A stretch of DNA of 64,000 bases from Haematococcus lacustris (lineage: Eukaryota; Chlorophyta; Chlorophyceae; Chlamydomonadales; Haematococcaceae): the NCBI GenBank assembly GCA_030144725.1, contig JASKMD010000025.1:806001-870000 (forward strand), given 5' to 3'. This document shows positions 9,947-64,000 of the stretch, in pieces (the stretch's first letter is position 1; each line of letters starts with the position of its first letter). Below the pieces are notes generated by a model, which did not search any database, was not told where the DNA came from, and saw only the letters and a program-made list of their open reading frames with translations. The position numbers and the translations under genes are program-made.

Positions 9947-9964
9947 TGCTAATTCGTGTGAGTG

Positions 9965-18505: not shown

Positions 18506-18553
18506 AAGTGACGAGGGCAGAGATTCGTTAGAGCTGCGCGTGCTAGCACAGGA

Positions 18554-18598
18554 CGTCCGCCTGGGAGTCGAACCCAGCGTTTGACACCGGTCATTGGT
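18554..18598 (-). repeat. Fragment related to the X LTR, next to the gap
   Basis: About 43 bases match, in reverse, the X LTR part from CCAATGACCGG to CCAGGCGGAC with one or two changes, then diverge. Contains the T-arm-like CTGGGTTCGACTCCCAG. It may be a related LTR or a chimeric contig end. Confidence 0.55.
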
Positions 18599-18603
18599 CG
18601 TCG

Positions 18604-19484
18604 TCACACTCTTGGACCGATCGCGAGCGCAGGGTTACCATTACATGGCATGGGAAGCGTTCGTGCCTTGCACCGTAACACCAGGTTCCAGGGGTATTGT
18701 ATGACCCACTGGGCGCTCTGGTGGCAGGCCAGTGAGAGGTGTGAACACATCACTGTATTCTGCCAGTCCAACTGAGCTTTGATAGCATCAGGGAGACCAT
18801 GAGGGGTTACCTCAGGTTCAGGTGTGGCAGAGCCATCAGGACTGATAACAGCCACAACGGCACGACCGCCTTTTCTCAACCACCTTGCTGCTACCTTGGC
18901 AGTAGCCATTGGTACAGTAGCCTTCATGGCACTGATGAGAAAGGCAGGTGGAGGAGTGACCATGGGTTGCTTGATAGCAGGGACTGCTGCAGGAGGTACT
19001 GCAGAGTGGCATGGTAATTGAACAGAAGGTTCACCTGGGCGGGCCAAAGACAAAGTCTTATGCTCATATGACAGTGTAGCCTGATTGGCAAACAACCAGT
19101 CATCACCCAAAAGCACATCATACCCTTTAACAAATCGTGGCATGACAGTCAGCTTGCACCTTGCATCGTGCCCTGGCAGAGACAAAGGTACTGACACGAA
19201 TCCATTGCAGGACAGTGACCCATTGTCTGCAAGCAGCCAGGTACGCTCAATGGCATACTTAAGCACAGGCAGATTATTTGCAGCAACAAAGTCTGCACTG
19301 ATAAAGAGTGAGTGGCTCCTGTGTCACACAGAAACATAGCCTGATGGCCATCGACAGTGCCTTCAAAAGAGAAATGCAAAGAACCACCGTTAGCTGCAGA
19401 TCCACAGATCAGGGCAGCAGGCACAGTGGCAGCATCAAACTTCTGTACACCAGAACAGTTTTGGCTTACTGTCTGGGCAGGTTC
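18604..19484 (-). pseudogene. Chromovirus Y protease region
   Basis: Retroviral-type aspartic protease downstream of gag in the same frame. The active site reads FLCDTGATHSL near 19320-19360. Two bases further the frame breaks and resumes in another frame (VLKYAIERTWLLADNGSL, then GYDVLLGDDWL, a typical second protease block), so the enzyme is frameshifted, apparently by about two missing bases. The open frame ends at 18604 just before the X-LTR-like fragment and the gap; no Y reverse transcriptase is visible in this window. Confidence 0.75.
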
Positions 19485-21908
19485 CTATGGGCTGGCCTTA
19501 GCAGGGCCTGAGCTGGGGCCAGGGCCACCAGGGCCAGGGCCAGGACCAGGGCCAGGCCTGCCGCGCTTGCCGCTGCCATTACCATCCCTGCTGCTGCCGC
19601 CCTTCTTGCCACTGCCTGAAGCAGGCCTCTTAGCTGCCTTTTTAGCTGCAATGGCTTCCCTTAGCTTCCTGACCAGAGTCGAGGTGCCCAGCTCACGCTG
19701 GGCTTGCTCAGGTGTCAGGCCAGCTGCCTTCTTGGGGCAGTCAGGCACCCAGTGGCCGTCCAGGCCACACCATAGGCAGTTGGTGGTGGGCGCACTGCTC
19801 TGGCCACCGTAATCAGTGGGCGCAGGAGCAGATGGGCCGGGCCTCGATGGGCCACCAACTTCACGGCGCAAGGCCGCTACCTGTGGAACAGAAGGGGCAG
19901 TCTTTTTGGGAGGAGGAGGAGGCATGGCATTGCCAGCACAGGCGACGATGGCCTTATGGTTTTGAATAGATATTTTAATAACATCATCAAGGGTAGGATT
20001 AGTCAAGGCCAGAAGGTCCTTGGTAACTGGGGTGCGAAGGTCAGCTGCTAGGCCACGCATGAATGCGGATACCATCATAGCATTATCCATGCACATGGTA
20101 CCAGCTAAAATAAAGGTATTCCTGAAATCAGTGACATATGACTGTAAGGAAGTACCAGGTTTCATGGACAGGTTATGTCCAGATAGCAGCTTCTGACGAG
20201 CCGAATCAATATCTTTAAATAGATCTTCACCAGTATATTGTATAAATTGTTCCTTAAGAACAGACCAGGTAGGATAAGCTCCATTGGTGATGGCACATGT
20301 ATCTCTTATGGATTGAAACCACAAGTCCCTTGCTCGACCGGTTAGGTACGAGGGGAAGAGGGCAGCAGGGTCAAACCCTTGCAGAGAGCAGTACAACTCA
20401 TAGTCCTCTAGAAATGTGACGGCACGACGGCCAGATGCAACGCTATTATCAGACCATTTATCAGGAGGGGGTAACCCTTTCTTATAAGATGGATACTGAT
20501 TATATTTATGCATATACATCATAGGTACCTCAGCAGAAGCAGAGGAATGAGGGGCTGTGAAACCAGGTGGCAGGTTAAAATCAGCATGTGCTTTCATGTG
20601 CATGTCAGTGTACCAGTGAGGGATCTCAACTGGCCTACCATGCTCATCATACAGTTTGGGCGTGGCCATTCCAGGGTCACTGGATGCACGGGTGGTCTGC
20701 CGAGGGGGATTAGCTTGAAAGCCATTGTACCCTTGGGGCAGGACAGGTCCAAAAGGACTCTCACCATACCTAGTGGGGGTAGATTCCCTCCATCTAGGCC
20801 CACCAAACAGTTGAGCTGGAGTAGGCTGATCACCATGATACACAGGTGCACGATCAGGCATAGGATGATCAGCAGGTCTGTCAAATAACCTCTGAGCCAC
20901 ATCAGTATGCAGTACTGCACCGGCATTATGGGTAGTAAGGTAGTCATTAAGACGTGGCGTATATGCACCAGGATTAGTAGGGGACCTGTTAGGACCACCT
21001 GTACTGGGGACAGCACCATTAACAGGATAAGTAGAAGGCATACGAGGGCCATTTGTATCTGTAATAGCATGTCCACCAGCATAGCCAGCAGCTCTAAAAG
21101 CTGATATACGTTGTGCAGCACGAGCAGATGCTGCAACATCAACCTGAACAGGCTGTGTAAAGTTGGCAGTAGGCCTCAAAGTACCAGGACTGGCAAATGA
21201 CATCGGTCGGGCTGCAGTCAGAGGACTAGGACCTCTTACCGTGTTTTGAGCCGCAGCTACGTTGCCTTCCAGGGTATCCAGGCGCTGTTGCACAGACGAA
21301 AGAGCAGCATTACGCTGCGCCAGAGCAGCCACCAGCTCACGGTTGCGCTGTTCCAGCTGGTCCACCCGCGTTGGCTCAGGGTCGTCCTCTTCTTCCTCAT
21401 CATACTCAGAGGGATCGGGATCTGGCGACGGGGTCTGGCGCCTAGTCCGCGGACGGGACGGCCCAGGAGCACCAGGATCTGGCGACAGGGAAGGACCAGG
21501 ATTGGTCGCGGGGGAAACACCAGGATTGGTGGCAGGTGCGTTCACTGCACCGCCAGGAAGGAATTCAGGGGCGAGCCCTGCTCCTTCCTCAGGAGCGAGA
21601 TCCTGACCAGGGGCAGGCTCCGTGGCAACGGGAGGATCCCCAGCAGGAGGAGCTTCGCCAGGAGCGCCACCTGGAATCCGCGCAGAGCGAGGAACAGGAG
21701 GACCCATTTGCAAGACAACCCCGTTGGCATCAATTACCACAGATCCGGGCATTGCTCCAATGTGGTCCTCCGGGGCCGGAGGCGCAGGCAGAGGCTGGAC
21801 TCCTGGGGGTAAAGTCGGCCCGTTCTGGTTCAGAGGAATCTGATGTACCATCGAATTGTGGTAGTCCTCAACAGTCGGTATGTAGCGGATGCGTTGATAG
21901 CGAACCAT
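19485..21908 (-). CDS. gag: Chromovirus Y Gag polyprotein
   Basis: Intact 807-residue ORF. Order: Pro-rich N-terminus (1-150), coiled coil VDQLEQRNRELVAALAQRN (about 185-225), a Pro/Gly/Asn-rich linker, a retrotransposon-gag domain (about 500-660; AVTFLEDYELYCSLQGFDP, YLTGRARDLWF), a CCHC knuckle CLWCGLDGHWVPDC (about 725), and a basic Gly/Pro-rich tail. It assembles the retrotransposon particle and binds its RNA (family knowledge). It stops at TAG (19485-19487); the protease follows in the same frame. The 57-bp leader to the LTR contains a TGG three bases after the LTR, fitting a tRNA primer site. Confidence 0.9.
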   Translation of the reverse strand: MVRYQRIRYIPTVEDYHNSMVHQIPLNQNGPTLPPGVQPLPAPPAPEDHIGAMPGSVVIDANGVVLQMGPPVPRSARIPGGAPGEAPPAGDPPVATEPAPGQDLAPEEGAGLAPEFLPGGAVNAPATNPGVSPATNPGPSLSPDPGAPGPSRPRTRRQTPSPDPDPSEYDEEEEDDPEPTRVDQLEQRNRELVAALAQRNAALSSVQQRLDTLEGNVAAAQNTVRGPSPLTAARPMSFASPGTLRPTANFTQPVQVDVAASARAAQRISAFRAAGYAGGHAITDTNGPRMPSTYPVNGAVPSTGGPNRSPTNPGAYTPRLNDYLTTHNAGAVLHTDVAQRLFDRPADHPMPDRAPVYHGDQPTPAQLFGGPRWRESTPTRYGESPFGPVLPQGYNGFQANPPRQTTRASSDPGMATPKLYDEHGRPVEIPHWYTDMHMKAHADFNLPPGFTAPHSSASAEVPMMYMHKYNQYPSYKKGLPPPDKWSDNSVASGRRAVTFLEDYELYCSLQGFDPAALFPSYLTGRARDLWFQSIRDTCAITNGAYPTWSVLKEQFIQYTGEDLFKDIDSARQKLLSGHNLSMKPGTSLQSYVTDFRNTFILAGTMCMDNAMMVSAFMRGLAADLRTPVTKDLLALTNPTLDDVIKISIQNHKAIVACAGNAMPPPPPKKTAPSVPQVAALRREVGGPSRPGPSAPAPTDYGGQSSAPTTNCLWCGLDGHWVPDCPKKAAGLTPEQAQRELGTSTLVRKLREAIAAKKAAKRPASGSGKKGGSSRDGNGSGKRGRPGPGPGPGPGGPGPSSGPAKASP

Positions 21909-21965
21909 AACCGAGGGCTGAGGGACAGGCTTGCAGTCAGACGCTAGTCTGGTCGGAAACCACTC

Positions 21966-22239
21966 TGTAACGTGCAGTGCACGTTGTTAGCCGAGAGACC
22001 GTCTTGCGTGTTGCGAGGGAAACTGCCATGGAGGAGTTTACAAGCGAACCTCGTGAGAGGGCTAGGGCTTAGAACGGGGCCCCCTGGAATCGAACCAGTT
22101 GTCCTCACAGCAGAGCTGCTAGGCTTTAACCTGCCCTACTCACTCGGTAAAAGTAATGCGCCCACCTGCGCCCGCCATAGGCAGTACACCAGGTGTCGCG
22201 GGCAAAGGGGAACGGTGTCGCTCAAGGCTCGCCGTTACA
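21966..22239 (-). repeat. Chromovirus Y 5' LTR (274 bp)
   Basis: Read on the minus strand it starts TGTAACGGCGAGCC and ends GTGCACGTTACA, the TG...CA ends of an LTR. The same 274 bp recurs at 61480-61753. The base run GGTCG follows at 22240-22244 and also precedes the other copy (61475-61479), which is a 5-bp target duplication. Holds a T-arm-like hairpin at 22085-22099. Confidence 0.9.
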
Positions 22240-24347
22240 GGTCGGTGTCGCCACATACATCGTGCGTAACTGGTAGTGAACAACACATAAAGCTGAGCCT
22301 AGCATCAACGGGGCTGGTGCCCGAGAACACGGTGGCAGAAATGGTCAAAACTTACAATGACGTCTTTGCTGATATCCCCGCTGGTCTACCGCCTGAACGA
22401 GATGTGGGACACACCATTCCACTGGAAGCGGGTACGCTGCCACAATGGGCACGCATGTACCGTTTGAGTCAACGAGAAATTGAGGAAATGAAAAAGCAGG
22501 TATCGGCGCTGCTGGAGAAGGGCTGGATAGAGCCAAGCGCTTCGCCCTGGGGGGCCCCTGTGCTCTTTGTGCAGAAGAAGGATGGGTCCCTGAGGATGTG
22601 CATTGACTACAGGGCGTTGAACAAGCGCACGGTGCGCGACCGATACCCACTGCCTCGTATTGATGATTTGCTTGACCAAGTCCGGGGGAAGAAGGTGTTC
22701 AGTTCTCTTGACCTGCAGTCTGGGTATCACCAGATCAGGATTACCCCCGAAGACGTCCCAAAGACAGCTTTCCTCACGCCCATGGGCCAGTTTCAATATA
22801 AGGTCCTGTGTTTTGGGCTGTGCAATGCCCCTGCAACGTTTCAGAAAACCATGAACAGGATCTTTGAGCCCATGATCAAGGCTGGTTCCGCCCTTGTCTA
22901 CCTAGATGACATTTTGGTGATGAGCAATACCCCTGAGGAGCATGTGCAGCATTTGAGGCAGGTCCTGGAGTTGATGAGAGCCCACAAGCTGTTTGCAAAA
23001 CTGAGCAAATGTGAGTTTAACAGACCTGAGCTGGCTTTCCTGGGCCACATAGTGGGCAGGAACGGTGTGGCAGTGGACCCTGCTAAAGTGAAGGTGGTGG
23101 CTGAGTGGCCTCAACCTAGAGGGCTGAAGGAATTGCAAGCCTTCCTAGGTCTGTGTAACTTCTTCCGCCGCTTCATCCGTGGCTACAGCTCTGTGGCTGC
23201 TCCCCTCACCGACCTGACAAGGCAAGACAAGCAAGCTGCACCTACGGGGGCACAACATGATGCAAGAGTGCAGGCAGCCTTTGCTAAGGACCCTCAAGTC
23301 AAGGGTGCCTTCCAGGCTCTGAAAGCAGCCCTGTGCTCAGCCCCTGTCCTAGCTCTGCCTGACTTCTCCAAGCCGTACTTAGTGTGGACTGACGCCTCCC
23401 TCCAAGGCACTGGTGGTGTGCTCATGCAAGACGGCCGTGTGGTGGCGTACACGAGCAAGAAGTTCACACCGGCTCAAACACGGTACACAACAGGCGAGCA
23501 GGAGCTCCTGGCCATTGTGAGGGCCCTGCAAGAATGGCGCTGCTATCTAGATGGGGCTGTGGGAGTGACCATTGTGACGGATCACAACCCTCTTGTGTAC
23601 CTGGCTTCTCAGACTAACCTATCCAGGCGCGTGGCGCGGTGGGTTGAGTTGATGTCCCGGTTCAAGTATGAGATCAAACACAAGCCTGGGGCTGTGAACA
23701 TTGCTGACCCCATCAGCCGCAGTGTCCAACAAATGCAGCAGGGAAGTAACAAGGACGATGATGAGGAGGAAGCTGTAGGTGCTGTGGTGCTGCGTAGAGA
23801 GGGCCAAGTGCTGGTCATGACAAGGAGACAGGCCCGGCAGACCCAGCCGTCCATCGCCCATGCGCCACCAGTGACACGCGAGCAAGACTCCGCCCAGCAG
23901 GCCGAGGGCCAGTCGGCTGTTGAGCGTACCGCAGGAGCGGTGCGGCCTGGTGGGGGGGAAGTCCCACTCCCTCGGCGAAGCCCATGTGCGACACCCGCGG
24001 AAAGAGAGGATGCGGAGCGGGTGAGAGAAGTGGAACTCGCACGGGCACCAGGTGGCTCGCTACATGATTTCATAATTGAAGGCTACAGCCATGACCCCTT
24101 GTTTCAATCAGGAAAGGCACAAAAGAGGCTGAGCCGCAGCGAGCGAGGACTGTGGTTGCTAAGGGACAGAGTGTGGGTGCCACGCAGTCCACTGGTTAAG
24201 CAAGCGGTGCTAGAGAAGTGCCATGATGATGCTTTTGCTGGCCATGTGGGTATCACAAAGACCAAGAAGCTGGTATCCCGACACTTCTACTGGCCGGGCT
24301 GGGACAAAGACGTGGAGGACTATGTGCGGCATTGTGATGCCTGCTAG
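22240..24347 (+). pseudogene. pol: Chromovirus X reverse transcriptase / RNase H (pol, first part)
   Basis: Open frame from the Y insertion point to a TAG at 24345-24347. RT blocks: WARMYRLSQREIEEMKKQ, VLFVQKKDGSLRMCIDYRAL, SSLDLQSGYHQIRI, FGLCNAPATFQ and the catalytic YLDDILV. Then RNase H (WTDASLQGTGGVLMQDGRVV, GEQELLAIV, TDHNPL, and a PGAVNIADPISR end) and the start of the integrase HHCC finger (HDDAFAGHVG..., CDAC). The TAG falls right after CDAC, where this family normally has Gln. The first 91 codons of the open frame belong to the Y LTR and are not part of X; at 22245 the X frame is in phase with the protease frame ending at 61479. Confidence 0.9.
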
Positions 24348-25496
24348 AGGAACAAACCTAGCTGCCTCCTTAAAGCCGGCAAACTGCAACCCCTGTCCAT
24401 CCCTGGTAAAAGATGGGAACATGTGAGCATGGACATGATTGTCAAGCTCCCAGCAAGTGGTGAAGAGAGGTATGACTCCATCCTGGTGTTTGTAGATCGC
24501 CTAAGCAAGATGGTGCACTTAGTGCCCACACATGAGTCAATCGACATCGCAAAGTTTGCAAGACTGTTCAAGAAAAATGTCATACGTTTGCATGGGAAGC
24601 CGTCATCGGTGTTGAGTGACAGAGGAGCAATCTTTCACAGTGAAAACTGGCGCGAGATCTGCCGGTTGCTGGGCATGCGGATAGCCATGAGCACGGCTTA
24701 CCACCCTGAGTCCGATGGGCAAACCGAGAGAGTGAACAGGGTGGTGGAAGAGATGTTGAGGGCCTACATCAGCCCCGCCCAGTCTGACTGGTCTGAGCAT
24801 TTGGACATGGTGGAATTCGCAATCAACAACTCATGGCATGAATCGGTGCAGAATACTCCCTTCTTCTTGAACTATGGAGAGCACCCGTTGACGCCAGCTT
24901 CTGAGGGGCTACCCCGGTCGGGGCCCAAGGCTCATTCCTTTGTGCAAGGCATCTTACAAGCAATCAAGAAGGCCAAGCAGTGTTGGGCTGAAGCTCAGCA
25001 GAAGATGAAGGCCCGAGAGGATGGCAGGAGAAGGCATGTGTCTTACAGCCCTGAGCAACTTATCATGCTATCGACTGAGAACATGAGGAGGAAAGTTGAT
25101 GATGTGGGAGTGCGGAAGTTGAAACCTAGATACGTTGGACCTTTTCGAGTGCTCCACATGGTGGGAGATGCAGCAGTCAAGATCCAGCTACCCCATCAAT
25201 GGCGTGTACACAATGTGTTCCATGTGTCCCTGGTGAAGCCATACGTGGGCGATGCGGTCCCAAACCTGGTAGCGCCACCGCCTGACCGTTGGGAAGACGG
25301 CCAGCCCGTGTACGAGGTGGAAAAGCTGGTTGACCATCGTCTTACGTCCGGCTATCGACCACAACTGGAGTTTCTGGTGAAGTGGGTTGGATACCCCTCT
25401 GAGAGCAACACATGGGAACCCCTAGTCAATCTGCAAGGTAGCATGGACCTGGTGAGGGAGTATGCTGCTGCCAAGAACCTACACATCCCAAAGTGA
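24348..25496 (+). CDS. pol: Chromovirus X integrase core and chromodomain (pol, second part)
   Basis: Continues in the frame of the upstream RT past the TAG; the first ATG is at 24429. DDE integrase: first Asp in MSMDMIVKLP, second in LSDRGAIFHS, Glu in DGQTERVNR. Then a GPF/Y-like module (PRYVGPFRVLHMV) and a C-terminal chromodomain (YEVEKLVDHRL...EFLVKWVGYP...NTWEPLVNL). Chromodomains steer chromovirus insertion to marked chromatin (family knowledge). Ends with TGA 144 bp before the LTR. Confidence 0.92.
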   Translation, partial: RNKPSCLLKAGKLQPLSIPGKRWEHVSMDMIVKLPASGEERYDSILVFVDRLSKMVHLVPTHESIDIAKFARLFKKNVIRLHGKPSSVLSDRGAIFHSENWREICRLLGMRIAMSTAYHPESDGQTERVNRVVEEMLRAYISPAQSDWSEHLDMVEFAINNSWHESVQNTPFFLNYGEHPLTPASEGLPRSGPKAHSFVQGILQAIKKAKQCWAEAQQKMKAREDGRRRHVSYSPEQLIMLSTENMRRKVDDVGVRKLKPRYVGPFRVLHMVGDAAVKIQLPHQWRVHNVFHVSLVKPYVGDAVPNLVAPPPDRWEDGQPVYEVEKLVDHRLTSGYRPQLEFLVKWVGYPSESNTWEPLVNLQGSMDLVREYAAAKNLHIPK

Positions 25497-25628
25497 AAAG
25501 ACAATAAAAAGTGTTTGTGGACGTTTGACACCAAGCGCCGACGTAAAGGCGTTAGCGACGGTACGACGCAGTACCCGAGCGGGGCAGGTCAATGATGGCA
25601 GCTGAGGACAGCTGGGGCCTTCGGCCAG

Positions 25629-25639
25629 GCGGGGGAGAA
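25629..25639 (+). promoter_or_regulatory. X polypurine tract
   Basis: GGCGGGGGAGAA immediately upstream of the LTR TG; expected site of plus-strand DNA priming. Confidence 0.8.
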
Positions 25640-25840
25640 TGTTACGAGCGCCGGTCGGAGTGCTAGCGAAGCGTCTCGGAAAAGTGATGACGCGATTGCG
25701 TCATAGTGGTGTCGGAGTGTAATGCCAATGACCGGTGTCAAATGCTGGGTTCGACTCCCAGGCGGACAGCCTTGTGTAAGGCACTGACATCGCCCTTGTC
25801 CGCTGAATTGGCACTACCTCCATACACCAGCTACGTAACA
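25640..25840 (+). repeat. Chromovirus X 3' LTR (201 bp)
   Basis: Starts TGTTACGAGCGCC and ends CTACGTAACA; identical by eye to 58749-58949. It is followed by TCAGT (25841-25845), the same five bases that precede the other LTR (58744-58748). Contains CTGGGTTCGACTCCCAG at 25745-25761. Confidence 0.95.
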
Positions 25841-26850
25841 TCAGTGTGTTCAGTGCATGGTTCAGTGTGTTCAGTGCTAGGGTTCAGTGTGTTCAGTGCA
25901 TGGTTCAGTGTGTTCAGTGCTAGGGTTCAGTGTGTTCAGTGCATGGTTCAGTGCGATCAGTGCTAGGGTTCAGTGCGTTCAGTGCTATGGTTCAGTGTGT
26001 TCAGTGCAAGGTTCAGTGCATTCAGTGCTTGGGTTCAGTGTGTTCAGTGCTAAGGTTCAGTGCATTCAGTGCATGGTTCAGTGTGTTCAGTGCATGGTTC
26101 AGTGCATTCAGTGCTATGGTTCAGTGTGTTCAGTGTATGGTTCAGTGTGTTCAGTGCATGGTTCAGTGTGTTCAGTGCAAAGGTTCATTGCATTCAGTGC
26201 TAGGGTTCAGTGTGGTCAGTGCTGATGTTCAGTGCGTTCAGTGCTAGGGTTCAGTGTGTTTAGTGCATGGTTCAGTGTGTTCAGTGCATGTTTTCAGTGT
26301 GTTCAGTGTTGGTGTTCAGTGTGTTCAGTGCATGTGTTCAGTGCGTTCAGTGCTAGGGTTCAGTGCGTTCAGTGTTGGTGTTCAGTGTGTTCAGTGCAAG
26401 GGTTCAGTGTGTTCAGTGCACGTTTTCAATGTGTTCAGTGCATGTTTTCAATGCGTTCAGTGGTGGTGTTCAGTGTGTTCAGTGCAAGGGTTCAGTGTGT
26501 TCAGTGCATGTGTTCAGTGTGTTCAGTGCACGTTGTCAGTGTGTTCAGTGCATGTTTTCAGTGCGTTCAGTGTTGGTGTTCAGTGTGTCAGTGCTAGGGT
26601 TCAGTGCGTTCAGTGTTGGTGTTCAGTGTGTTCAGTGCATGTGTTCAGTGCGTTCAGTGCTATGGTTCAGTGTGTTCAGTGTTGCGTCAGTGTGTTCAGT
26701 GCATGGTTCAGTGCGTCCAGTGCTAGGGTTCAGTGCGTTCAGTGCATGGTTCAGTGCGTCCAGTGCTAGGGTTCAGTGTGTTCAGTGCATGGTTCAATGC
26801 GTTCAGTGCATGTGTTCAGTCCGTTTAGTGCTTTGGTTCAGTGCTTCTAT
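25841..26850. repeat. TTCAGTGTG satellite, right part
   Basis: 21-22 bp units such as TTCAGTGTGTTCAGTGCATGG and the TAGGG variant. The same TGTG-type units end at 58748 just before the X 5' LTR, so this looks like one array split by X. Confidence 0.9.
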
Positions 26851-29347: not shown

Positions 29348-32300
29348 CACTCCTACAATTTAAGCCCTGCGTTTTTCCCTGCGCGTTGGCCGACCTTGTC
29401 CAAATGGGCTGAAACTTGGCACGTTGGTAGCTTGTGATGTAAGGAATCCATCCCAAAAGAAATCAGGTCAAAAAAATCAAAGGCTAAGGCTCGGCGGCCC
29501 GTGGCGTTCACGCAGGGACGGATGCAGGGATTGAGGGGGGGGCGCAGGGACAAACGCAGGGATGGAAGGGGGGGTGCAGGGACGAACGCAGGGATTAGCG
29601 CAGGGATGAGCGCAGGGATTATGGGCGCAGGGATGAGCGCAGGGATTAAGGCAGGGACGAGCGCAGGGATTATGGGCGCAGGGATGAGCGCAGGGATAAA
29701 CGCAGGGACGAGCGCAGGGATGAACGCAGGGACGAGCGCAGGGATTATGGGCGCAGGGACGAGCGCAGGGATTAACGCAGGGATGAGCGCATGGATTATG
29801 GGCGCAGGGACGAGCGCAGGGATTAACGCAGGGATTATCGCAGGGATTAACGCAGGGATTAACGCAGGGATTAACGCAGGGATTATCGCAGGGATTAACG
29901 CAGGGATTAACGCAGGGATTAACGCAGGGATTAACGCAGGGATTATCGCAGGGATTAACGCAGGGATTAACGCAGGGATTAACGCAGGGATTAACGCAGG
30001 GATTAACGCAGGGATTAACGCAGGGATTAACGCAGGGATTATCGCAGGGATTAACGCAGGGATTAACGCAGGGATTAACGCAGGGATTATCGCAGGGATT
30101 AACGCAGGGATTAACGCAGGGATTAACGCAGGGATTATCGCAGGGATTAACGCAGGGATTAACGCAGGGATTAACGCAGGGATTATCGCAGGGATTAACG
30201 CAGGGATTAACGCAGGGATTATCGCAGGGATTATCGCAGGGGTTATCGCAGGGATTATCGCAGGGATTATCGCAGGGATTAACGCAGGGATTAACGCAGG
30301 GATTAACGCAGGGATTATCGCAGGGATTAACGCAGGGATTAACGCAGGGATTAACGCAGGGATTATCGCAGGGATTAACGCAGGGATTAACGCAGGGATT
30401 ATCGCAGGGATTATCGCAGGGGTTATCGCAGGGATTATCGCAGGGATTATCGCAGGGATTAACGCAGGGCTCGAGTGCAGGGACGGACGCAGGGACGGAT
30501 GCAGGGGCAGACGCAGGGATTGTAGGAACGTGCATGATGCTTACAGCAGTGTCTAACACAAGCACAAATAACCTTCTCCGTGTTTGCTACATCCAACTAC
30601 ATACATCACATCCATCTACTGCGATCATTTAGGCTGGAGTCTGGCTGTTGCATGTCAGCTGGCTCCTGCCTGTAAGCTGGCTGCCACCAAGCTGCTACGG
30701 CCTCTTGGCTGCTGATCCCGGCTTGCACCACTGCTCCATGGCCACACCACTGCCAAGAGGCTGTTGCACCCCTGCACAACAACAACATGCACACAAGGGG
30801 ACATGTGCACAAGAGCACACACCTTACTGATGAAGGACGCACCCACGACGTTCATCTGCAATCAGGCAGGCAACACAGATGTGGTGGAACGTGACGCTAT
30901 ATAGATGAAGCGCGACTGGTGCTGCGTGACTGCTACCACGAAAACGGCGGCTGCACCGCACTGCGACATCGCACCTGGCATAGTGTACGAGTGCAGTCCG
31001 GATCCTGCAAGCCTGCGAGCGTGCAAGCCGGCAAACCTGCAAGCCACGAGGCGGCAAGACACATCGCACATCGCTCAATTGCCAGCCGAAGCCACTTACC
31101 ACCACTAGCGTGCAACGGGCCCTCCTCTGTGGCAGCCACCAGCCAGGCCTTGCCAGTTTCTCGTCGCCTGATCCCGCTTGGGGAAGCAATATGTGTGCTG
31201 CCTTGTATGCTAAGGGATGAACGATGCCGCCGTTAGAACTGCTCTACAACACGCAAACTTCGTCACTCGCAAGCTTCGCGATTCACTAACTTTGAAAGTT
31301 CACTAACCAAGATAGCGCTTATCCAGACTGTGCTAGGCCTTGTCGGGAACGTACTGCGATGTATTGGCAAAGGCTTGCGTCAAGATTGGCCTTAGTACGA
31401 GGAATGAAGGTGCACTGGCAAGGCCTGGCTGGTGGCTGCCACAGAGGAGGGCCCGTTGCACGCTAGTGGTGGTAAGTGGCTTCGGCTGGCAATTGAGCGA
31501 TGTGCGATGTGTCTTGCCGCCTCGTGGCTTGCAGGTTTGCCGGCTTGCACGCTCGCAGGCTTGCAGGATCCGGACTGCACTCGTACACTATGCCAGGTGC
31601 GATGTCGCAGTGCGGTGCAGCCGCCGTTTTCGTGGTAGCAGTCACGCAGCACCAGTCGCGCTTCATCTATATAGCGTCACGTTCCACCACATCTGTGTTG
31701 CCTGCCTGATTGCAGATGAACGTCGTGGGTGCGTCCTTCATCAGTAAGGTGTGTGCTCTTGTGCACATGTCCCCTTGTGTGCATGTTGTTGTTGTGCAGG
31801 GGTGCAACAGCCTCTTGGCAGTGGTGTGGCCATGGAGCAGTGGTGCAAGCCGGGATCAGCAGCCAAGAGGCCGTAGCAGCTTGGTGGCAGCCAGCTTACA
31901 GGCAGGAGCCAGCTGACATGCAACAGCCAGACTCCAGCCTAAATGATCGCAGTAGATGGATGTGATGTATGTAGTTGGATGTAGCAAACACGGAGAAGGT
32001 TATTTGTGCTTGTGTTAGACACTGCTGTAAGCATCATGCACGTTCCTACAATCCCTGCGTCTGCCCCTGCATCCGTCCCTGCGTCCGTCCCTGCACTCGA
32101 GCCCTGCGTTAATCCCTGCGATAATCCCTGCGATAATCCCTGCGATAACCCCTGCGATAATCCCTGCGATAATCCCTGCGTTAATCCCTGCGTTAATCCC
32201 TGCGATAATCCCTGCGTTAATCCCTGCGTTAATCCCTGCGTTAATCCCTGCGATAATCCCTGCGTTAATCCCTGCGTTAATCCCTGCGTTAATCCCTGCG

Positions 32301-33631
32301 ATAATCCCTGCGATAATCCCTGCGATAACCCCTGCGATAATCCCTGCGATAATCCCTGCGTTAATCCCTGCGTTAATCCCTGCGATAATCCCTGCGTTAA
32401 TCCCTGCGTTAATCCCTGCGTTAATCCCTGCGATAATCCCTGCGTTAATCCCTGCGTTAATCCCTGCGTTAATCCCTGCGATAATCCCTGCGTTAATCCC
32501 TGCGTTAATCCCTGCGTTAATCCCTGCGATAATCCCTGCGTTAATCCCTGCGTTAATCCCTGCGTTAATCCCTGCGTTAATCCCTGCGTTAATCCCTGCG
32601 TTAATCCCTGCGTTAATCCCTGCGTTAATCCCTGCGTTAATCCCTGCGTTAATCCCTGCGATAATCCCTGCGTTAATCCCTGCGTTAATCCCTGCGTTAA
32701 TCCCTGCGATAATCCCTGCGTTAATCCCTGCGTTAATCCCTGCGTTAATCCCTGCGATAATCCCTGCGTTAATCCCTGCGTTAATCCCTGCGATAATCCC
32801 TGCGATAATCCCTGCGATAACCCCTGCGATAATCCCTGCGATAATCCCTGCGATAATCCCTGCGTTAATCCCTGCGTTAATCCCTGCGATAATCCCTGCG
32901 TTAATCCCTGCGTTAATCCCTGCGTTAATCCCTGCGATAATCCCTGCGTTAATCCCTGCGTTAATCCCTGCGTTAATCCCTGCGTTAATCCCTGCGATAA
33001 TCCCTGCGTTAATCCCTGCGCTAATCCCTGCGTTAATCCCTGCGATAATCCCTGCGTTAATCCCTGCGTTAATCCCTGCGTTAATCCCTGCGATAATCCC
33101 TGCGTTAATCCCTGCGTTAATCCCTGCGTTAATCCCTGCGATAATCCCTGCGTTAATCCCTGCGCTCGTCCCTGCGCCCATAATCCCTGCGCTCATCCCT
33201 GCGTTAATCCCTGCGCTCGTCCCTGCGCCCATAATCCCTGCGCTCGTCCCTGCGTTCATCCCTGCGCTCGTCCCTGCGTTTATCCCTGCGCTCATCCCTG
33301 CGCCCATAATCCCTGCGCTCGTCCCTGCCTTAATCCCTGCGCTCATCCCTGCGCCCATAATCCCTGCGCTCATCCCTGCGCTAATCCCTGCGTTCGTCCC
33401 TGCACCCCCCCTTCCATCCCTGCGTTTGTCCCTGCGCCCCCCCCTCAATCCCTGCATCCGTCCCTGCGTGAACGCCACGGGCCGCCGAGCCTTAGCCTTT
33501 GATTTTTTTGACCTGATTTCTTTTGGGATGGATTCCTTACATCACAAGCTACCAACGTGCCAAGTTTCAGCCCATTTGGACAAGGTCGGCCAACGCGCAG
33601 GGAAAAACGCAGGGCTTAAATTGTAGGAGTG
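29348..33631. mobile_element. 4284-bp CACT-ended fold-back element
   Basis: Starts CACTCCTACAATTTAAGCC and ends with its reverse complement; flanked by AG on both sides (29346-29347, 33632-33633). Arms 29348-31157 and 31414-33631 are near-identical inverted repeats around a 256-bp spacer. Each arm: terminal 160 bp, a tandem array of the 12-mer CCCTGCGTTAAT and its GATAAT variant (about 29500-30490 left, 32090-33470 right), and about 650 bp of unique DNA. The right array is 408 bp (34 units) longer. No gene is recognisable; the long Cys-Asn-Pro ORFs are the 12-mers read through. Inserted in an exon of copy B. Confidence 0.85.
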
Positions 33632-34758: not shown

Positions 34759-35399
34759 CCCTTTTGTTTCCAACTGCTTGCCTGGTCGGAGTGTCCGCCA
34801 CCAAGCTGACCACAATAGGGTACAGCCGCGGTCCCACAGTGGGACGATCGCCTAAGCCTCCGTGATTGTGCAGGTAGATGTGCTGGGAGGCATCGGGTCC
34901 CAAGGCGCCTTTGAGAGCTTCATAGATGGGCTTCATGTAGCCTGTGATGTGTGATGCGGTTCCCGGGGTGAGGATAACGCCAAGAATGGCCCAGGTTTTG
35001 CTTTTACCTCGCACATGGTCAGGTACATCCACCACCTGCAGCTCATCATCATTCAATGCTTAAGGGCTCATTAGTGTAAGGCCTTTATGATGCAACACAA
35101 GGTCTGTCTGAGAAGAATGCAATACATGGGGTAATGTTGGTGGCATTGTGATGATGCATGAAGTATGTGTTGATGACTGCTCACCTGCATGCCCACCACT
35201 CCCACTGATGTGCCGTTGATGCTCACCCAGTCCAGGCCCAAGCTGACCCTCACAGCGTATTGGTTATCATACACATCAGGCGTAACATGCTCCCGGATGT
35301 GGGCAGCAGCAGGGCCTACATGTGATGCAACACACACAAACGTGTAATCAAGACTTATCGATGATTGGCTCTGATTCGAATAACACAGTCCATTCATCG

Positions 35400-35522
35400 A
35401 AGAAGAAGAAGAAGAAGAAGAAGACTACTCCGGCGTGGAAGCCGGCGTGCATTAAGGAAGGAGCTTCCGCCTGGGGCGCGGCCTGCTCCCACCACCTACC
35501 CTGGGTGATGGAGAGACCCTAC
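35400..35522 (-). mobile_element. 3' end of the Dualen-type LINE
   Basis: Minus strand: after the stop a short UTR ends in CCTTAATGCACGCC, a GCCGG...CCGG hairpin, GGAGTAGTC and a (TTC)n tail of about eight units (35400-35423). The same end, with a different loop, closes two short elements at 52572 and 53405. Confidence 0.8.
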
Positions 35523-44705: not shown

Positions 44706-44764
44706 GTCGTGGAGGGCATCCTTATATAGGACCAGTGTATTGTAGGTCTTGTCAGCAATCGTGC

Positions 44765-45264
44765 NNNNNNNNNNNNNNNNNNNNNNNNNNNNNNNNNNNN
44801 NNNNNNNNNNNNNNNNNNNNNNNNNNNNNNNNNNNNNNNNNNNNNNNNNNNNNNNNNNNNNNNNNNNNNNNNNNNNNNNNNNNNNNNNNNNNNNNNNNNN
44901 NNNNNNNNNNNNNNNNNNNNNNNNNNNNNNNNNNNNNNNNNNNNNNNNNNNNNNNNNNNNNNNNNNNNNNNNNNNNNNNNNNNNNNNNNNNNNNNNNNNN
45001 NNNNNNNNNNNNNNNNNNNNNNNNNNNNNNNNNNNNNNNNNNNNNNNNNNNNNNNNNNNNNNNNNNNNNNNNNNNNNNNNNNNNNNNNNNNNNNNNNNNN
45101 NNNNNNNNNNNNNNNNNNNNNNNNNNNNNNNNNNNNNNNNNNNNNNNNNNNNNNNNNNNNNNNNNNNNNNNNNNNNNNNNNNNNNNNNNNNNNNNNNNNN
45201 NNNNNNNNNNNNNNNNNNNNNNNNNNNNNNNNNNNNNNNNNNNNNNNNNNNNNNNNNNNNNNNN
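44765..45264. other. Assembly gap of exactly 500 N
   Basis: Placeholder-length run of N just upstream of the LINE start; hides the LINE 5' end and its target duplication. Confidence 0.98.
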
Positions 45265-58224: not shown

Positions 58225-58371
58225 CACTCGTAGGAATTAGCAGCCAGGCCCCCAGACCGACTTTGGCCGTTTGGGTTGAAACTTTGCACCCTGGTAGCTT
58301 GTAAATTAAGCAATCCAGCCCAAATAAAATCAGGCCCCAAAAGTCAAAGGCTGGGGCTCAGTGATCCGTGG
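58225..58371 (+). mobile_element. CACTCGTAGG-type element end, locus 3
   Basis: CACTCGTAGGAATTAGCAGC then the shared ~140-bp end, leading into TTCAGTGTG repeats. Same order as at 10594 and 52469. Confidence 0.65.
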
Positions 58372-58748
58372 CGTTTTGTTCAGTGTGTTCAGTGCTAGGG
58401 TTCAGTGTGTTCAGTGCTAGGGTTCAGTGTGTTCAGTGCATGGTTCAATGTGTTCAGTGCTAGGGTTCAGTGTGTTCAGTGCTAGGGTTCAGTGCGTTCA
58501 GTGCATGTGTTCAGTGTGTTCAGTGCATGGTTCAGTGTATTCAGTGCATGGTTCAGTGTGTTTAGTGCTGTGTTCAGTGTGTTCAGTGCATGGTTCAGTG
58601 TATTCAGTGCATGGTTCAGTGTATTCAGTGCATGGTTCAGTGCGTTCAGTGCTAGGGTTCAGTGTGTTCAATGCATGGTTCAGTGCGTTCAGTGCTAGGG
58701 TTTAGTGTGTTTTGTGTATGGTTCAGTGTGTTCAGTGCATGGTTCAGT
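58372..58748. repeat. TTCAGTGTG satellite, left part
   Basis: TTCAGTGTGTTCAGTGCTAGGG-type units that stop at the X LTR; the same unit types resume at 25841. Confidence 0.9.
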
Positions 58749-58949
58749 TGTTACGAGCGCCGGTCGGAGTGCTAGCGAAGCGTCTCGGAAAAGTGATGAC
58801 GCGATTGCGTCATAGTGGTGTCGGAGTGTAATGCCAATGACCGGTGTCAAATGCTGGGTTCGACTCCCAGGCGGACAGCCTTGTGTAAGGCACTGACATC
58901 GCCCTTGTCCGCTGAATTGGCACTACCTCCATACACCAGCTACGTAACA
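58749..58949 (+). repeat. Chromovirus X 5' LTR (201 bp)
   Basis: TGTTACG...CGTAACA, matching 25640-25840. Preceded by TCAGT. Three bases after it a TGGCTTCCAGACC stretch fits a tRNA primer-binding site. Confidence 0.95.
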
Positions 58950-59142
58950 ATCTGGCTTCCAGACCGACGTTGAGAGACTTCTGGCCAGACATCGATATAG
59001 CAACAACGTGTCCTAACCTGATGGCGAACTACGACGTGTTTGACGACGCAGATCTGGAGCTGAACGCGATGGATACTGAGGGTATGTACCATTAGGTCCC
59101 TCTAGTCCCTCTTGTCGCGTTTTGCAAAGTTCGCGTTTAGTA

Positions 59143-60744
59143 ATGCTACCAGTTCCAGCGGAGAAGCGTCTTAGGAAGCGCAGTGAAACTTTGGGTCAAC
59201 ATCAGCGGGTGGAAAGGCCGGGGTCGAGCTCGCAGCCGGTGGCTGCCCAGGAGGTAGTTGCGCGTGAAATGCAACACACACATGCTTTGACCCACCCGAC
59301 CGCTGATGCTGAACGTGTTCGTCATGCAGATGTCCGCCAAGGGCCAGAACCTGTGGGTCCACTGACTCGCAATGTAGGCGAGCTCAGTTTGGAGGAACTC
59401 GAGCAGGAGTTGCGCAGGAGGCGTGCTCGCCATGAGCAGCCCGGCCAGCATGCAGAGGTAGCCGCTGGAGGCAGTGGCATTGCTGGTGGCAACGGTGCTG
59501 TTGGTGGCGGCGGTGTTGCTGGTGGTAGTGGTGGTGTCGGCCAGCCTACAGCTCCAGGTGGCACTACCGGTGGGGTGCTTACCCCCGGTAGTGACCAGGT
59601 TGCGCGTAGTGGCCCAGGGGGCACGGCGAACCACCCTGCACCCGGTGGGCCTGGGGCCACGGGTGGCAGTGGTCCTGGCAGCTCAGGTGGCGGCAGCCAG
59701 GCTGGTGAGGGCCAGGCAGCGGCGGCGGCGGCATCTGGGGCAGGTGGCCCGGGGCCGAGCGCCAATCAGCCCGGCGAGAACCAAGTGAGTGGCTTCAGAG
59801 CAGTTATGCCCAACCCTAATATGTGGCGTATGGATGATGTAGAGAAGGGCAGAAATGTGAAGATGTTCTTGCGTGAGGTGACACGATGGGCAGCTGTTGC
59901 ACGTGTGCCCATGATCGACGCGTTGCAACTACATGTGGCTGATCCTCTCAAAGAAGCTTTGTTTGCCATTGCCGAGCAGGCTAAGGCTGAGCGTCGGCTC
60001 ATGACAGAAGAGGACATGGAAAAGATGTTCTTAGACCTGGTGGGTGCGGATACCATCCAGGTGCAACACACAGCCATGAAGAGGCTGATCAATAGAGAGT
60101 GTGTCCAGGGAGACCAGAGTGTTGCCCAGTACAACGTGGCGTTCAGGCTGCTAGCACAGCAGGTGCAAGCTTTCCCTGCAAGTGCTCTGTGTGAGATGTA
60201 TGTGCAAGGTCTACAGGCTGACCTACGCCGTGAGTGTGCAGTCATGCCGAATGGATTGCCATGGAGCAACCTGAATGATGTGATGATGTATGCGTTGGGC
60301 AGACAGGTCTCCATCCAGGCAGGCGTGAGCAAGGCTCAAGGCATGGTAGCTGTGGCAAGAGGTGCAGGCAGTGGCAGGCCTGACCGGCCCCGTGGTGGGC
60401 GTGTACGTGCCCGTGGTGTGCAGATGCAGGCGGCAAACACCGTTCTGAAGCGGTGGCTTCCGCCGCACCGGCGACATGAGGAGACCGAACTGGACCGGTT
60501 CCTGGAGGCGCACCGTGGGGGCCGTGGGGCTGGCCCATCTCGTGGCGGAGGCCGTGGTGGTGGCCGCGGAGGTGGCCGTGGCTCTGGCCGTGGTGGCGGC
60601 TCAGCTGGGCGTGGTGGTGGTGCAGCATGCCGCACATCAGAGTTGAATGCTAATGGCAAGCGGCCACTGACATGCTACAACTGTGGCGGCACAGGACACC
60701 TGGCACGTGACTGTGCGTCGCCTCGAGGTCAGGGTGCCGCCTAG
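59143..60744 (+). CDS. gag: Chromovirus X Gag
   Basis: ATG at 59143 (MLPVPAEKRLRKRSE); the frame is open from 59122. About 533 residues: a Glu/Arg-rich helix (ELSLEELEQELRRRRARHEQ), long Gly-rich linker, retrotransposon-gag domain (NMWRMDDVEKGRNVKMFLRE ... SVAQYNVAFRLLAQQVQAF), RGG-type repeats and a CCHC knuckle CYNCGGTGHLARDC. Ends at TAG; the protease follows in the same frame. An ATG at 59020 (MANYDVFDDADLELNAMD) followed by a GTATGT might be an upstream spliced first exon. Confidence 0.9.
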   Translation: MLPVPAEKRLRKRSETLGQHQRVERPGSSSQPVAAQEVVAREMQHTHALTHPTADAERVRHADVRQGPEPVGPLTRNVGELSLEELEQELRRRRARHEQPGQHAEVAAGGSGIAGGNGAVGGGGVAGGSGGVGQPTAPGGTTGGVLTPGSDQVARSGPGGTANHPAPGGPGATGGSGPGSSGGGSQAGEGQAAAAAASGAGGPGPSANQPGENQVSGFRAVMPNPNMWRMDDVEKGRNVKMFLREVTRWAAVARVPMIDALQLHVADPLKEALFAIAEQAKAERRLMTEEDMEKMFLDLVGADTIQVQHTAMKRLINRECVQGDQSVAQYNVAFRLLAQQVQAFPASALCEMYVQGLQADLRRECAVMPNGLPWSNLNDVMMYALGRQVSIQAGVSKAQGMVAVARGAGSGRPDRPRGGRVRARGVQMQAANTVLKRWLPPHRRHEETELDRFLEAHRGGRGAGPSRGGGRGGGRGGGRGSGRGGGSAGRGGGAACRTSELNANGKRPLTCYNCGGTGHLARDCASPRGQGAA

Positions 60745-61479
60745 GGAGTTGCCCTGGACTTTGCTGTGCACGCTAGCCAGGGTGATGACAAGCAAGAACA
60801 CGTACCATGTGAGTTGAAGAGGCCAAAGTTGTCTGTTGGGCCAATGCATGGTATGTGTAAGATTCCTGCTTTGTCAAGTGCACAACCTTCCGGTGCTATT
60901 GCAAGCGCCCATGGTGTGGATCTCTCGTTTGTGTATGAAGCCAGCCTAGGAGGCAAGCCGTGCAGAATTATGATGGACACGGGGTCATCCTTTGACCTAA
61001 TCTCTTAGAAGTGGCTAACCAATGTAAGGAAAGTGAACCGGAATGGACAACCCGTAAATTCAATCAAGGTGTCCATTGTCACGACGCAACCAACAGTGGC
61101 TGAGAGCATTGATGGCAAGCTGATACGCATGGCCGAAGAAGCTAGAGGAGAATTGTGCATGCAAGGAGTCAAGACGACGGCCGTGCTTAAGGTTGTGCCT
61201 GGTATGCTGGGGCAGATTGACGTCGTGCTAGGCAAGCCATGGCAAACGATGTATGATGCCAAGCTGCTGGTACGGGAGCAAAGCTGCCATGTTACTACGC
61301 CTGATGGCAAGGCACACACCCTGTATGCCAAGCGGCCGAGACATGCAAATGGCAAGATGCTTGCACAGCTAACAGAGCTGCGCATGGCACCGGAGCTGAT
61401 GAGCGCCCCTCAGGCAGCACGAGCTGTGCGGCATGGTTGCCCTAGTTTGCTGCTGATGGTGCAAAAAGAAGAAGGGTCG
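60745..61479 (+). pseudogene. Chromovirus X protease
   Basis: Same frame as gag after the TAG. Active site IMMDTGSSFDLIS, then an in-frame TAG (61006-61008), then VNSIKVSIVTTQ and the second protease block GQIDVVLGKPW. The frame reaches 61479 exactly at a codon end, where the Y LTR begins; it continues in phase at 22245. Confidence 0.85.
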
Positions 61480-61753
61480 TGTAACGTGCAGTGCACGTTG
61501 TTAGCCGAGAGACCGTCTTGCGTGTTGCGAGGGAAACTGCCATGGAGGAGTTTACAAGCGAACCTCGTGAGAGGGCTAGGGCTTAGAACGGGGCCCCCTG
61601 GAATCGAACCAGTTGTCCTCACAGCAGAGCTGCTAGGCTTTAACCTGCCCTACTCACTCGGTAAAAGTAATGCGCCCACCTGCGCCCGCCATAGGCAGTA
61701 CACCAGGTGTCGCGGGCAAAGGGGAACGGTGTCGCTCAAGGCTCGCCGTTACA
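61480..61753 (-). repeat. Chromovirus Y 3' LTR (274 bp)
   Basis: Matches 21966-22239 by eye. In Y sense it is preceded by a purine run CTTCTGGGGGGGGTGAA (61754-61770), the polypurine tract. GGTCG at 61475-61479 is its target duplication. Confidence 0.92.
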
Positions 61754-61983
61754 TTCACCCCCCCCAGAAGAGGTCCGTTCCGCCCAAGGAGATCCAAGGA
61801 CTCGCAGCCAATACTGCTTATTGGGGCTAGTGTGAACCATGATTGGTTAACACACATGATAGCCAGGAGCATGATAGCTCAGGTGCAAGAATGCAACCAT
61901 CCAGCCAGAAGGCTGCTCACACACACAGCACAACCCATAGCACACCACAGCACCGTAGCAGGAACACCAATCAGGCTGGGTCT

Positions 61984-63120
61984 TCACTTGAGACAGTGGA
62001 TGGCATTGTACTCAGCCAGAAGCTTGTCACAGCCAGTCAGGTTGGCTCGTGGCTCCCAGGTATTGAAGGAGGCATCATAGCCCTCCCACTGGACCAGGAA
62101 CTCTCCAGCCTTTCCTGCACGGACGTATCTGTGGTCAAGCAGACGCTCAACATAGTACACAGGAGTCTCATCCATCCATTCCACAGGAGGAGGCATGATA
62201 CCCACGTCACTGCCAGAGTACTTCTTGAGCAGTGACACATGGAAGACAGGGTGCAGCCTGCTCATGTTGGCAGGCAGAGTGAGTCTGTAGGCATTGGCAT
62301 TGATCTTAGCCTCGACCACGAAGGGTCCCACATAACGTGGCACAAACTTGCGGACCTTGCCTGTCTTAATGCGCAGGTTCCTGGTGCTCAGCAAGACCTG
62401 TGCACCCACCTCAAACTCCACGTCTTTCAGACCAGTGTCAGCATGACGCTTGTACCTGGCCTGAGCATCAGCCATGTGCCGCCTTGCATGGGCAACACCT
62501 TCTTTCCACCATGTGGCAAAGGCATGGGCAGAGGGACAGCGGCCGCCATCAGGCAGGTCACGCAGCCCAGGAGTGACAGGGCTCTGGCCTGTGTTGAGGA
62601 AGAAGGGCGTGGAGTGTATAGACTCCTGCCATGAGTTGTTGACAGCAAACTCAGCCAAGGCAAGGTGATCAGGCCAGTCAGCCTGAGTGGGAGAGATGTA
62701 ATGACGAAGCATTTCCTCAAGTACACGATTGTACCTCTCAGTCTGGCCATCACTCTGTGGCCTGTAGGCAGTAGACATATTAGTCTTCATACCCAGCAGC
62801 TTTTTAACAGCATGCCAGAACTTATTATTAAAGTGTGCACCACGATCGGTGAGTACCTCGGCCGGAAGACCGTGTAACCTGAATACATTGTTAATGAACA
62901 GCCGGGTGAAGGCCATGGCATTCATGGCCTCCTTGCAGGGCACAAAGTGCACCATTTTGCTCAGGCGGTCAACAATGACACAGATGGCATCATAGCCATG
63001 GGTCCCAGTAGGCAGCTTGGTCACAAGGTCCATAGACACATGTTCCCACCGATACCCTGGGACAGTCAGGGGTCTCAACAGACCACCTGGCTTAGAGTTG
63101 GAGGACTTATCGCGTTGACA
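61984..63120 (-). CDS. pol: Chromovirus Y integrase core and chromodomain
   Basis: Open frame from about 63120. DDE integrase with Asp in VSMDLVTKLP, Asp in LTDRGAHFNN and Glu in DGQTERYNR; then PRYVGPFVVEAKI (GPF/Y module) and a C-terminal chromodomain (YYVERLLDHRYVRAG...FLVQWEGYDASFNTWEPRANL). TGA at 61984-61986. Closely similar in layout to X but a distinct family. Confidence 0.92.
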   Translation of the reverse strand, partial: CQRDKSSNSKPGGLLRPLTVPGYRWEHVSMDLVTKLPTGTHGYDAICVIVDRLSKMVHFVPCKEAMNAMAFTRLFINNVFRLHGLPAEVLTDRGAHFNNKFWHAVKKLLGMKTNMSTAYRPQSDGQTERYNRVLEEMLRHYISPTQADWPDHLALAEFAVNNSWQESIHSTPFFLNTGQSPVTPGLRDLPDGGRCPSAHAFATWWKEGVAHARRHMADAQARYKRHADTGLKDVEFEVGAQVLLSTRNLRIKTGKVRKFVPRYVGPFVVEAKINANAYRLTLPANMSRLHPVFHVSLLKKYSGSDVGIMPPPVEWMDETPVYYVERLLDHRYVRAGKAGEFLVQWEGYDASFNTWEPRANLTGCDKLLAEYNAIHCLK

Positions 63121-64000
63121 CGCATCACATAGTCCCTAACATCAGCACGCACAGTGTTCCACCAGAATACACGTGTGACACGCTCGAGGGTTTTGGTCAT
63201 TCCCACATGGCCAGCATAGGCAGCATCATGCATCTCGTGCAGAATGTGCTCACGCAGTTCAGGCACATTGGGGACCACCACTAAGTCCTTACCAGAGATC
63301 CGCCAGAGACCATCGGTGTCCTGGTACATTCCAGAATGATCAGCATTGGCAGCAAACGCAGGGTCCTGCTGGTATCCAAGGTTCAGTTGATCAGAAAGTC
63401 CCATTGGAGCAGCTGGAGCCGCAGGATACTGCGCTGTCTCATCCTGTGTAACAGGGGTCTCAGACCCTATCGGGTCCAACATGGCTTCAACACACGTGGT
63501 ATCTTTCTCAAATTGTGACAGAGCAAGGGGGGATTTCGCACTGATGGCAGCCGGGGCAGCGGCACGAAGGCCAGCCTCACGAGCTCCCCCCCCCTCCAAA
63601 GAAAGCTTGGCCTGCCTCCTGGTGGTGACAGCACACACCGAGGCACTTTCTGGAGAATCGTGCACAATCCGGGACAAAGGGTCTGCAGGGTTGACAGTGC
63701 CGGCAATATGCACAAGACTGTATGAGAACCTGCTCATGAACTCCATCCACCGAGCCTGGCGCCTAGATAGCACTTTCTGGGTAGGCAAAGCAACCAAGGG
63801 TTGGTGATCAGTGAACAGAGTGAATGGCACGCCCTCTAAGTAGCAGCGCCATTCTTTGCATGCTGTGACTAAGGAGAGGAACTCCTGTTCACCAGTTGTG
63901 TAGTTGATCTCAGCAGGTGATAGCTTACGGCTTAGATAAGCCAATGGATAGCCATCCTGCATGAGGACTGCACCCAGTCCCTGAAGGGACGCATCACAGT
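63121..64000 (-). pseudogene. pol: Chromovirus Y RNase H and integrase zinc finger (partial)
   Basis: RNase H part: YTTGEQEFLSLVTACKEWRC, TDHQPLVAL, AGTVNPADPLSR; then a linker and the HHCC start HDAAYAGHVGMTKTLERV. The frame slips close to 63128 just before the expected CDACQRDK-like block, which is readable only in another frame. The reverse transcriptase should lie beyond the window end. Confidence 0.85.

What the first reader, a model, noticed from the sequence alone, without database searches (positions are those of the whole stretch)
18506..64000. Two nested retrotransposons show that contig 2 belongs downstream of contig 3
X is split between 58749-61479 (LTR, gag, protease) and 22240-25840 (RT to LTR). 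Y is split between 61480-64000 (LTR, integrase, RNase H) and 18604-22239 (protease, gag, LTR). X has TCAGT at 58744-58748 and 25841-25845; Y has GGTCG at 61475-61479 and 22240-22244. The X frame ends on a codon at 61479 and resumes in phase at 22245, and the TTCAGTGTG satellite stops at 58748 and resumes at 25841. The simplest reading is one X[Y]X locus cut up by wrong scaffolding around the 500-N gaps. A duplicated haplotype is the alternative.
Basis: seen in the sequence. Interest (0 to 1): 0.92.

Follow-up and report, generated by a model that had tools for sequence, protein, structure and literature searches.

The report
Four nested retrotransposons expose misordered contigs
In the green alga Haematococcus, jumping genes landed inside one another like nested dolls, and the matching broken halves show that two neighbouring pieces of the published chromosome were most likely put in the wrong order.

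Summary
The window is C136:806001-870000 of a Haematococcus assembly; C136's length equals Chr25 of Bian et al. 2023 (hifiasm + 3D-DNA). X and Y are Ty3 chromoviruses with LTR pairs identical at 201/201 and 274/274 sites and the stated duplications TCAGT and GGTCG. In 8 of 8 other X copies fetched (of 39 listed), the contig-3 and contig-2 halves of X are adjacent, overlapping by exactly the 5 duplicated bases.

The nest is deeper than reported. Past 64000, Y is cut by a third element, Z (CCAGG on both sides, one side in contig 2). Z's 5' LTR is cut by a LINE, W: its fragments in contigs 3 and 2 tile to exactly 222 bp around a 12-bp duplication, and contig 2's first four bases (AAGT) equal W's terminal four. 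So contig 2 followed contig 3: X[Y[Z[W]Z]Y]X. The smallest correction swaps contigs 2 and 3.

Unresolved: contigs 3 and 4 share an exact 2,671-bp overlap inside W, and the assembly reportedly holds both haplotypes. Reads would decide. This is an assembly error at an ordinary kind of locus.

The parts
58378..58748 (.). Satellite left of X (TTCAGTGTG subtype); TSD TCAGT at 58744-58748
58749..58949 (+). X 5' LTR, 201 bp, TG...CA
   Evidence: 201/201 identical to 25640-25840
59080..60744 (+). X gag ORF (zinc knuckle)
   Evidence: PF00098
61009..61479 (+). X left half of pol (protease region by position; no Pfam hit), ends on a codon
61475..61479 (.). Y target-site duplication GGTCG, contig-3 copy
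61480..61753 (-). Y 3' LTR, 274 bp
   Evidence: 274/274 identical to 21966-22239; 7 of 7 other copies fetched differ at 5-9 sites
61984..63135 (-). Y integrase core, SH3-like, chromodomain
63075..63998 (-). Y RNase H and integrase zinc-binding region; RT continues past the window to C136:870917
18006..18505 (.). 500-N scaffold gap left of contig 2
18506..18509 (-). AAGT, matches the last four bases of LINE W (its 5' end)
   Evidence: two other W copies end ...CCGAAAAAGT
18510..18680 (-). [not shown]
   Evidence: left part of this LTR is C136:883060-883122
18681..18685 (.). Z target-site duplication CCAGG, contig-2 copy (other copy C136:870918-870922)
18686..21965 (-). Y right half: pol start, protease, gag (stop-to-stop ORFs 18604-19323 and 19485-21986, which overrun the element edges)
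   Evidence: (PF08284, PF03732)
21966..22239 (-). Y 5' LTR
22240..22244 (.). Y target-site duplication GGTCG, contig-2 copy
22245..24347 (+). X right half of pol: RT, RNase H, integrase zinc domain, then in-frame TAG
24348..25496 (+). X integrase core, SH3-like, chromodomain, same frame after the TAG
25640..25840 (+). X 3' LTR
25841..26843 (.). TSD TCAGT (25841-25845) and satellite right of X, same subtype and register as the left flank
44765..45264 (.). 500-N scaffold gap between contigs 2 and 3

Best explanation
One genomic locus, built by four successive retrotransposon insertions, was cut in two by the scaffold. X (a Ty3 chromovirus) inserted in a satellite. Y, another chromovirus, inserted in X's pol in opposite orientation. 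Z, a chromovirus about 77% identical to X, inserted in Y just before RT. W, a LINE, inserted in Z's 5' LTR. Part of the Y/Z region was also tandemly duplicated. Contig 3 holds the left shell of the nest and ends inside W; contig 2 starts four bases before W's other end and holds the right shell. The true order is therefore contig 3 then contig 2; the scaffold has them reversed, and swapping these neighbours is the smallest correction. Shown: complementary halves, duplications, LTR tiling and uninterrupted copies elsewhere. Inferred: that the cause is 3D-DNA misordering of contigs that broke inside repeats, and that the W stretch between them (about 3.1 kb if this W has the same length as contig 4's) is simply missing.
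Against: Contig 3's end and contig 4's start share 2,671 identical bases inside W, which looks like an assembler overlap favouring contig 3 to contig 4; the other listed W copies match at 99% or less over a 600-bp piece (40 of 300 candidates scored). The W of contig 4 has a different right flank from contig 2, so both joins cannot be simple. One of the 7 Y loci fetched gave no match. No reads or Hi-C contacts were available. Genome searches for the X|Y left junction, the Z/W junction and contig 3's left flank did not complete, so an allele of the nest elsewhere in the assembly was not fully sought.
Confidence: 0.9

Rival explanations
1. Haplotype interleaving: contigs 2 and 3 come from opposite haplotypes that both carry the nest, and the scaffold put the two haplotigs side by side; each haplotype's other half is missing or collapsed.
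For: Marcolungo et al. 2024 report that most of their sequences align twice to the Bian 2023 assembly and that the species is diploid, about 1.5% heterozygous in K-0084 (PMC7617258, passages and section 3.1). Contigs 0 and 1 here share 13,466 identical bases, so redundant sequence is present.
Against: The halves are strictly complementary, with zero LTR differences over the 646 sites compared between the contigs (201 + 274 + 171), where 1.5% heterozygosity would give about 10 if alleles were mixed (arithmetic; sampling error applies). Only one Y|X junction was found among the 40 scored candidates. The right-flank query found no other place above 94% over its full length. The contig-3 side was not searched genome-wide.
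Confidence: 0.06
2. A real rearrangement: the nest was once continuous, but later recombination between identical W copies joined contig 3 to contig 4, and contig 2 now lies elsewhere or on the other haplotype. (If one haplotype keeps the old order this overlaps with the best explanation, so the confidences are not exclusive.)
For: Exact 2,671-bp overlap between contig 3's end and contig 4's start within W, with both W copies in the same orientation.
Against: Contig 2 sits on the same scaffold next to contig 3, and a 26-kb contig misplaced by one position needs no rearrangement. A repeat-induced overlap would look the same.
Confidence: 0.06
3. Coincidence: two unrelated broken copies of X and Y whose halves happen to be complementary.
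For: X and Y are repetitive: 39 other places each among the 40 scored candidates.
Against: Needs independent matches of three 5-bp duplications, one 12-bp duplication, W's terminal four bases, two frames and exact LTR tiling.
Confidence: 0.01

Closest known systems
Nested LTR retrotransposons (insertions within insertions, as described in large plant genomes; recalled, no call)
   Same: Younger elements inserted in older ones, each with its own target-site duplication and LTR pair.
   Different: Here it is four deep in a green alga, with a LINE innermost and a 5,965-bp tandem duplication; not a new mechanism.
Hi-C contig misplacement in Haematococcus lacustris (Marcolungo et al. 2023, PMC9861903, passages read)
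   Same: Same species, Hi-C scaffold joins contradicted by independent evidence.
   Different: That work used its own ONT/Hi-C assembly and optical maps; here the evidence is repeat anatomy inside what I infer to be the SAG 192.80 assembly.
Ty3/chromovirus families (Pfam RVT_1, RT_RNaseH, rve, SH3_Tf2-1, Chromo)
   Same: X, Y and Z carry these domains in this order (Y's RT lies past the window).
   Different: Their LTRs each contain a perfect tRNA-type B-box motif; see noticed in passing.
Helenus/Ajax LTR elements derived from small RNA genes (PMC10886601; start of abstract and passages seen)
   Same: Small-RNA-like sequence linked to LTR elements.
   Different: Those are non-autonomous; X, Y and Z encode gag and pol, and no Rfam tRNA match was found.

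Membership tests
Ty3 chromovirus (X, Y, Z) | pol order RT, RNase H, integrase with C-terminal chromodomain | tested here: met
   X by Pfam; Z; Y by Pfam from RNase H to chromodomain, its RT read from the ORF past the window, not scanned with Pfam
Ty3 chromovirus (X, Y, Z) | LTR pair with TG...CA ends | tested here: met
Ty3 chromovirus (X, Y, Z) | 5-bp target-site duplication | tested here: met
   TCAGT, GGTCG, CCAGG
Ty3 chromovirus (X, Y, Z) | primer-binding site complementary to a tRNA 3' end | tested here: inconclusive
   A TGG-starting stretch lies a few bases inside each 5' LTR, but no matching tRNA was identified; ARAGORN found none in the window
LINE (W) | RT with RNase H and no LTRs | tested here: met
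   RVT_1 and RNase_H; no terminal repeat of W seen in the self-comparison
LINE (W) | longer target-site duplication and simple 3' tail | tested here: met
   12-bp GACGAGGGCAGA and GAA-type tail
Scaffold order error | raw reads contradict the published join | not testable with these tools
   No reads available; inferred from sequence anatomy

The most novel reading that the evidence does not exclude
Both joins are real: one haplotype keeps contig 3 - W - contig 2, while in the other, recombination between two identical W copies removed contig 2 and fused contig 3 to contig 4, so this nest is a structurally heterozygous site caught soon after it formed.
Probability: 0.06. Interest if true: 0.45.

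Novelty: new member of a known kind. Interest (0 to 1): 0.27.

Why it matters
It shows that target-site duplications and split LTRs of nested elements can act as an internal check on Hi-C scaffolds, to the base and without new data. It also warns users that contig order on C136 (by length Chr25) of this astaxanthin-producing alga is probably wrong around 824-891 kb, and that a neighbouring 13.5-kb stretch is present twice.

Tried and rejected
Rejected: that Y reaches the gap edge at 18506 (it is cut by Z at 18681). Rejected: that contig 4 carries the right half of the nest within its first 108.6 kb. Considered and left open: real W-W recombination. An Rfam search for a tRNA in the LTRs gave none, either in 18506-25845 with relaxed thresholds (one weak unrelated hit) or in the whole window at gathering scores, and ARAGORN gave 0. 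No allele of contig 2's right flank was evident: best full-length other matches 93-94%. The C83 copy of W has an unrelated left flank; its right end was not reached in the piece fetched. Paper searches on tRNA-like LTRs listed 20 of 78 papers and 7 of 7; of these I opened only PMC10886601, for passages. I make no claim that the LTR motif is unpublished. (scaffolding papers) was seen as a listing only.

Full report
SOURCE. The window is G000:C136:806001-870000 of a 307.9-Mb assembly in 597 contigs. C136 is 8,590,500 bp, the length of Chr25 in Table 2 of Bian et al. 2023 (PMC10400597, passages and section 5 read). X's RT piece hits Haematococcus lacustris proteins, the best of them at 98% identity over 79% of the query. 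That assembly was made with hifiasm v0.14-r312 and 3D-DNA from strain SAG 192.80. I infer that C136 is Chr25 of that assembly; the genome carries no name in the tools.

OBSERVATION. Gaps, LTR pairs, duplications and frames are confirmed. The exception is the left edge of Y on contig 2: 18510-18680 is not Y but the LTR of a third element.

BEYOND THE WINDOW. Positions are on C136. Y RT runs on to 870917. CCAGG lies at 870918-870922, then a 222-bp LTR at 870923-871144 and Z pol on the minus strand. Contig 2 has the same LTR end at 18680 followed by CCAGG at 18681-18685 and Y's protease side. The local codon phase of Y is kept across the Z insertion. Z pol matches X's right half at 76.8% over 3,438 bp, and its domains are those of a chromovirus.

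CONTROLS WITH OTHER COPIES. A query across the Y|X junction of contig 2 found the window itself plus 39 other places; all 39 matched only from the duplication onward, so none has Y there (40 of 322 candidates were scored). I fetched 8 of those 39: in 8 of 8 the contig-3 half and contig-2 half of X are adjacent and overlap by exactly 5 bp. For the Z insertion point I fetched 7 of 39 other Y places: in 6 the RT side and protease side are adjacent with a 5-bp overlap (five directly; in L050 one alignment starts at base 3, so the figure is extended by two bases); L045 gave no match and may be the wrong stretch. The two Y LTRs differ at 0 of 274 sites, while the 7 other Y copies fetched differ from them at 5-9 sites, gaps counted. 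The satellite on both sides of X is one subtype, unlike the two other arrays compared, and its register is unbroken when the flanks are put together.

ORDER OF CONTIGS. From 689287 to 1000000 the scaffold has five contigs with 500-N gaps: 689287-804279, 804780-824005, 824506-850764 (contig 2), 851265-890896 (contig 3) and 891397 onward (contig 4). X's and Y's right halves occur as such only in contig 2; contig 3 holds their LTR copies, Z's own LTRs and the 72-77% matches to Z and Y RT, and the first 108.6 kb of contig 4 holds no match of 100 bp or more to the X, Y and Z queries, Z's LTR piece included. The smallest correction is to exchange contigs 2 and 3. Why 3D-DNA reversed them is inference: both are short against a contig N50 of 304.8 kb, and both end in repeats. 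Marcolungo et al. 2023 (PMC9861903, passages) report 864 incongruences in their own H. lacustris Hi-C scaffolds and 83% of putative misjoins backed by ONT reads, but they also say errors did not vary significantly with contig length.

EVIDENCE THAT CUTS THE OTHER WAY. Contig 3's end and contig 4's start share 2,671 identical bases within W. Over a 600-bp piece of W the other listed copies are at 99% or less (40 of 300 candidates scored). So the contig 3-contig 4 join may be a real graph edge. Contig 4's W ends in a different flank, a 21-bp satellite, so it cannot be the undisturbed insertion whose duplication is in contig 2. Either two W copies are identical over this stretch and produced a false overlap, or recombination between them made a second allele. 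Without reads this stays open. Marcolungo et al. 2024 (PMC7617258, passages and section 3.1) report that most of their sequences align twice to the Bian 2023 assembly (their reference 31) and conclude diploidy, so haplotype mixing is a standing risk here. Three genome-wide searches that bear on an allele of the nest (X|Y left junction, Z/W junction, contig 3's left flank) did not complete.

VERDICT. The elements, the nesting and the misordering are all of known kinds, so the finding is well supported and of moderate practical interest. The confidences of the best explanation and the rearrangement rival overlap and are not meant to sum to one.

Noticed in passing
C136:870157-882079 (L009, L010): A 5,965-bp tandem duplication of part of Y RT plus most of Z, 4 differences in 5,958 aligned bases, with a 7-bp filler (CTTAGCC) at the junction.
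   Followed up: partly
window 1-12245: Identical to C136:792035-804279, the end of the preceding contig: contigs 689287-804279 and 804780-824005 share 13,466 exact bases, so this sequence is present twice in the scaffold.
   Followed up: partly
window 58857, 25748 (+), 61610, 22096, 18574 (-): All three LTR families carry a perfect GGTTCGANTCC, the tRNA-type pol III B box (motif recalled), in element sense. 7 of 7 occurrences in 311.5 kb lie in these LTRs (about 0.6 expected by arithmetic; X and Z may share it by descent). No Rfam or ARAGORN tRNA was found, and X-Y and Y-Z LTR alignments score no better than shuffles.
   Followed up: partly
window 58834-58876 and 18555-18597: X and Z LTRs share a 43-bp patch at 42/43 identity around that motif; some similarity continues downstream of it, the rest of the two LTRs is more diverged.
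   Followed up: partly
window 24345-24347: In-frame TAG in X's integrase zinc domain, while Z's frame is open at the matching place; the Y copy also has frame breaks and small indels against other copies.
   Followed up: no
window 29348-31157 and 31414-33631: Long inverted repeat in contig 2 (best alignments 96.8% over 1,582 and 96.9% over 1,175 columns), containing 12-bp arrays; real or an assembly fold-back is unknown.
   Followed up: no
window 35399-44764: A LINE related to W (70-79% identical in the main alignments); similarity to W can be followed to about 44207, contig 2 ends at 44764.
   Followed up: partly
window 2660-2846 and 6264-6473: Interstitial telomere-like arrays, TAGGGT and ACCCTA, inside contig 1.
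   Followed up: no
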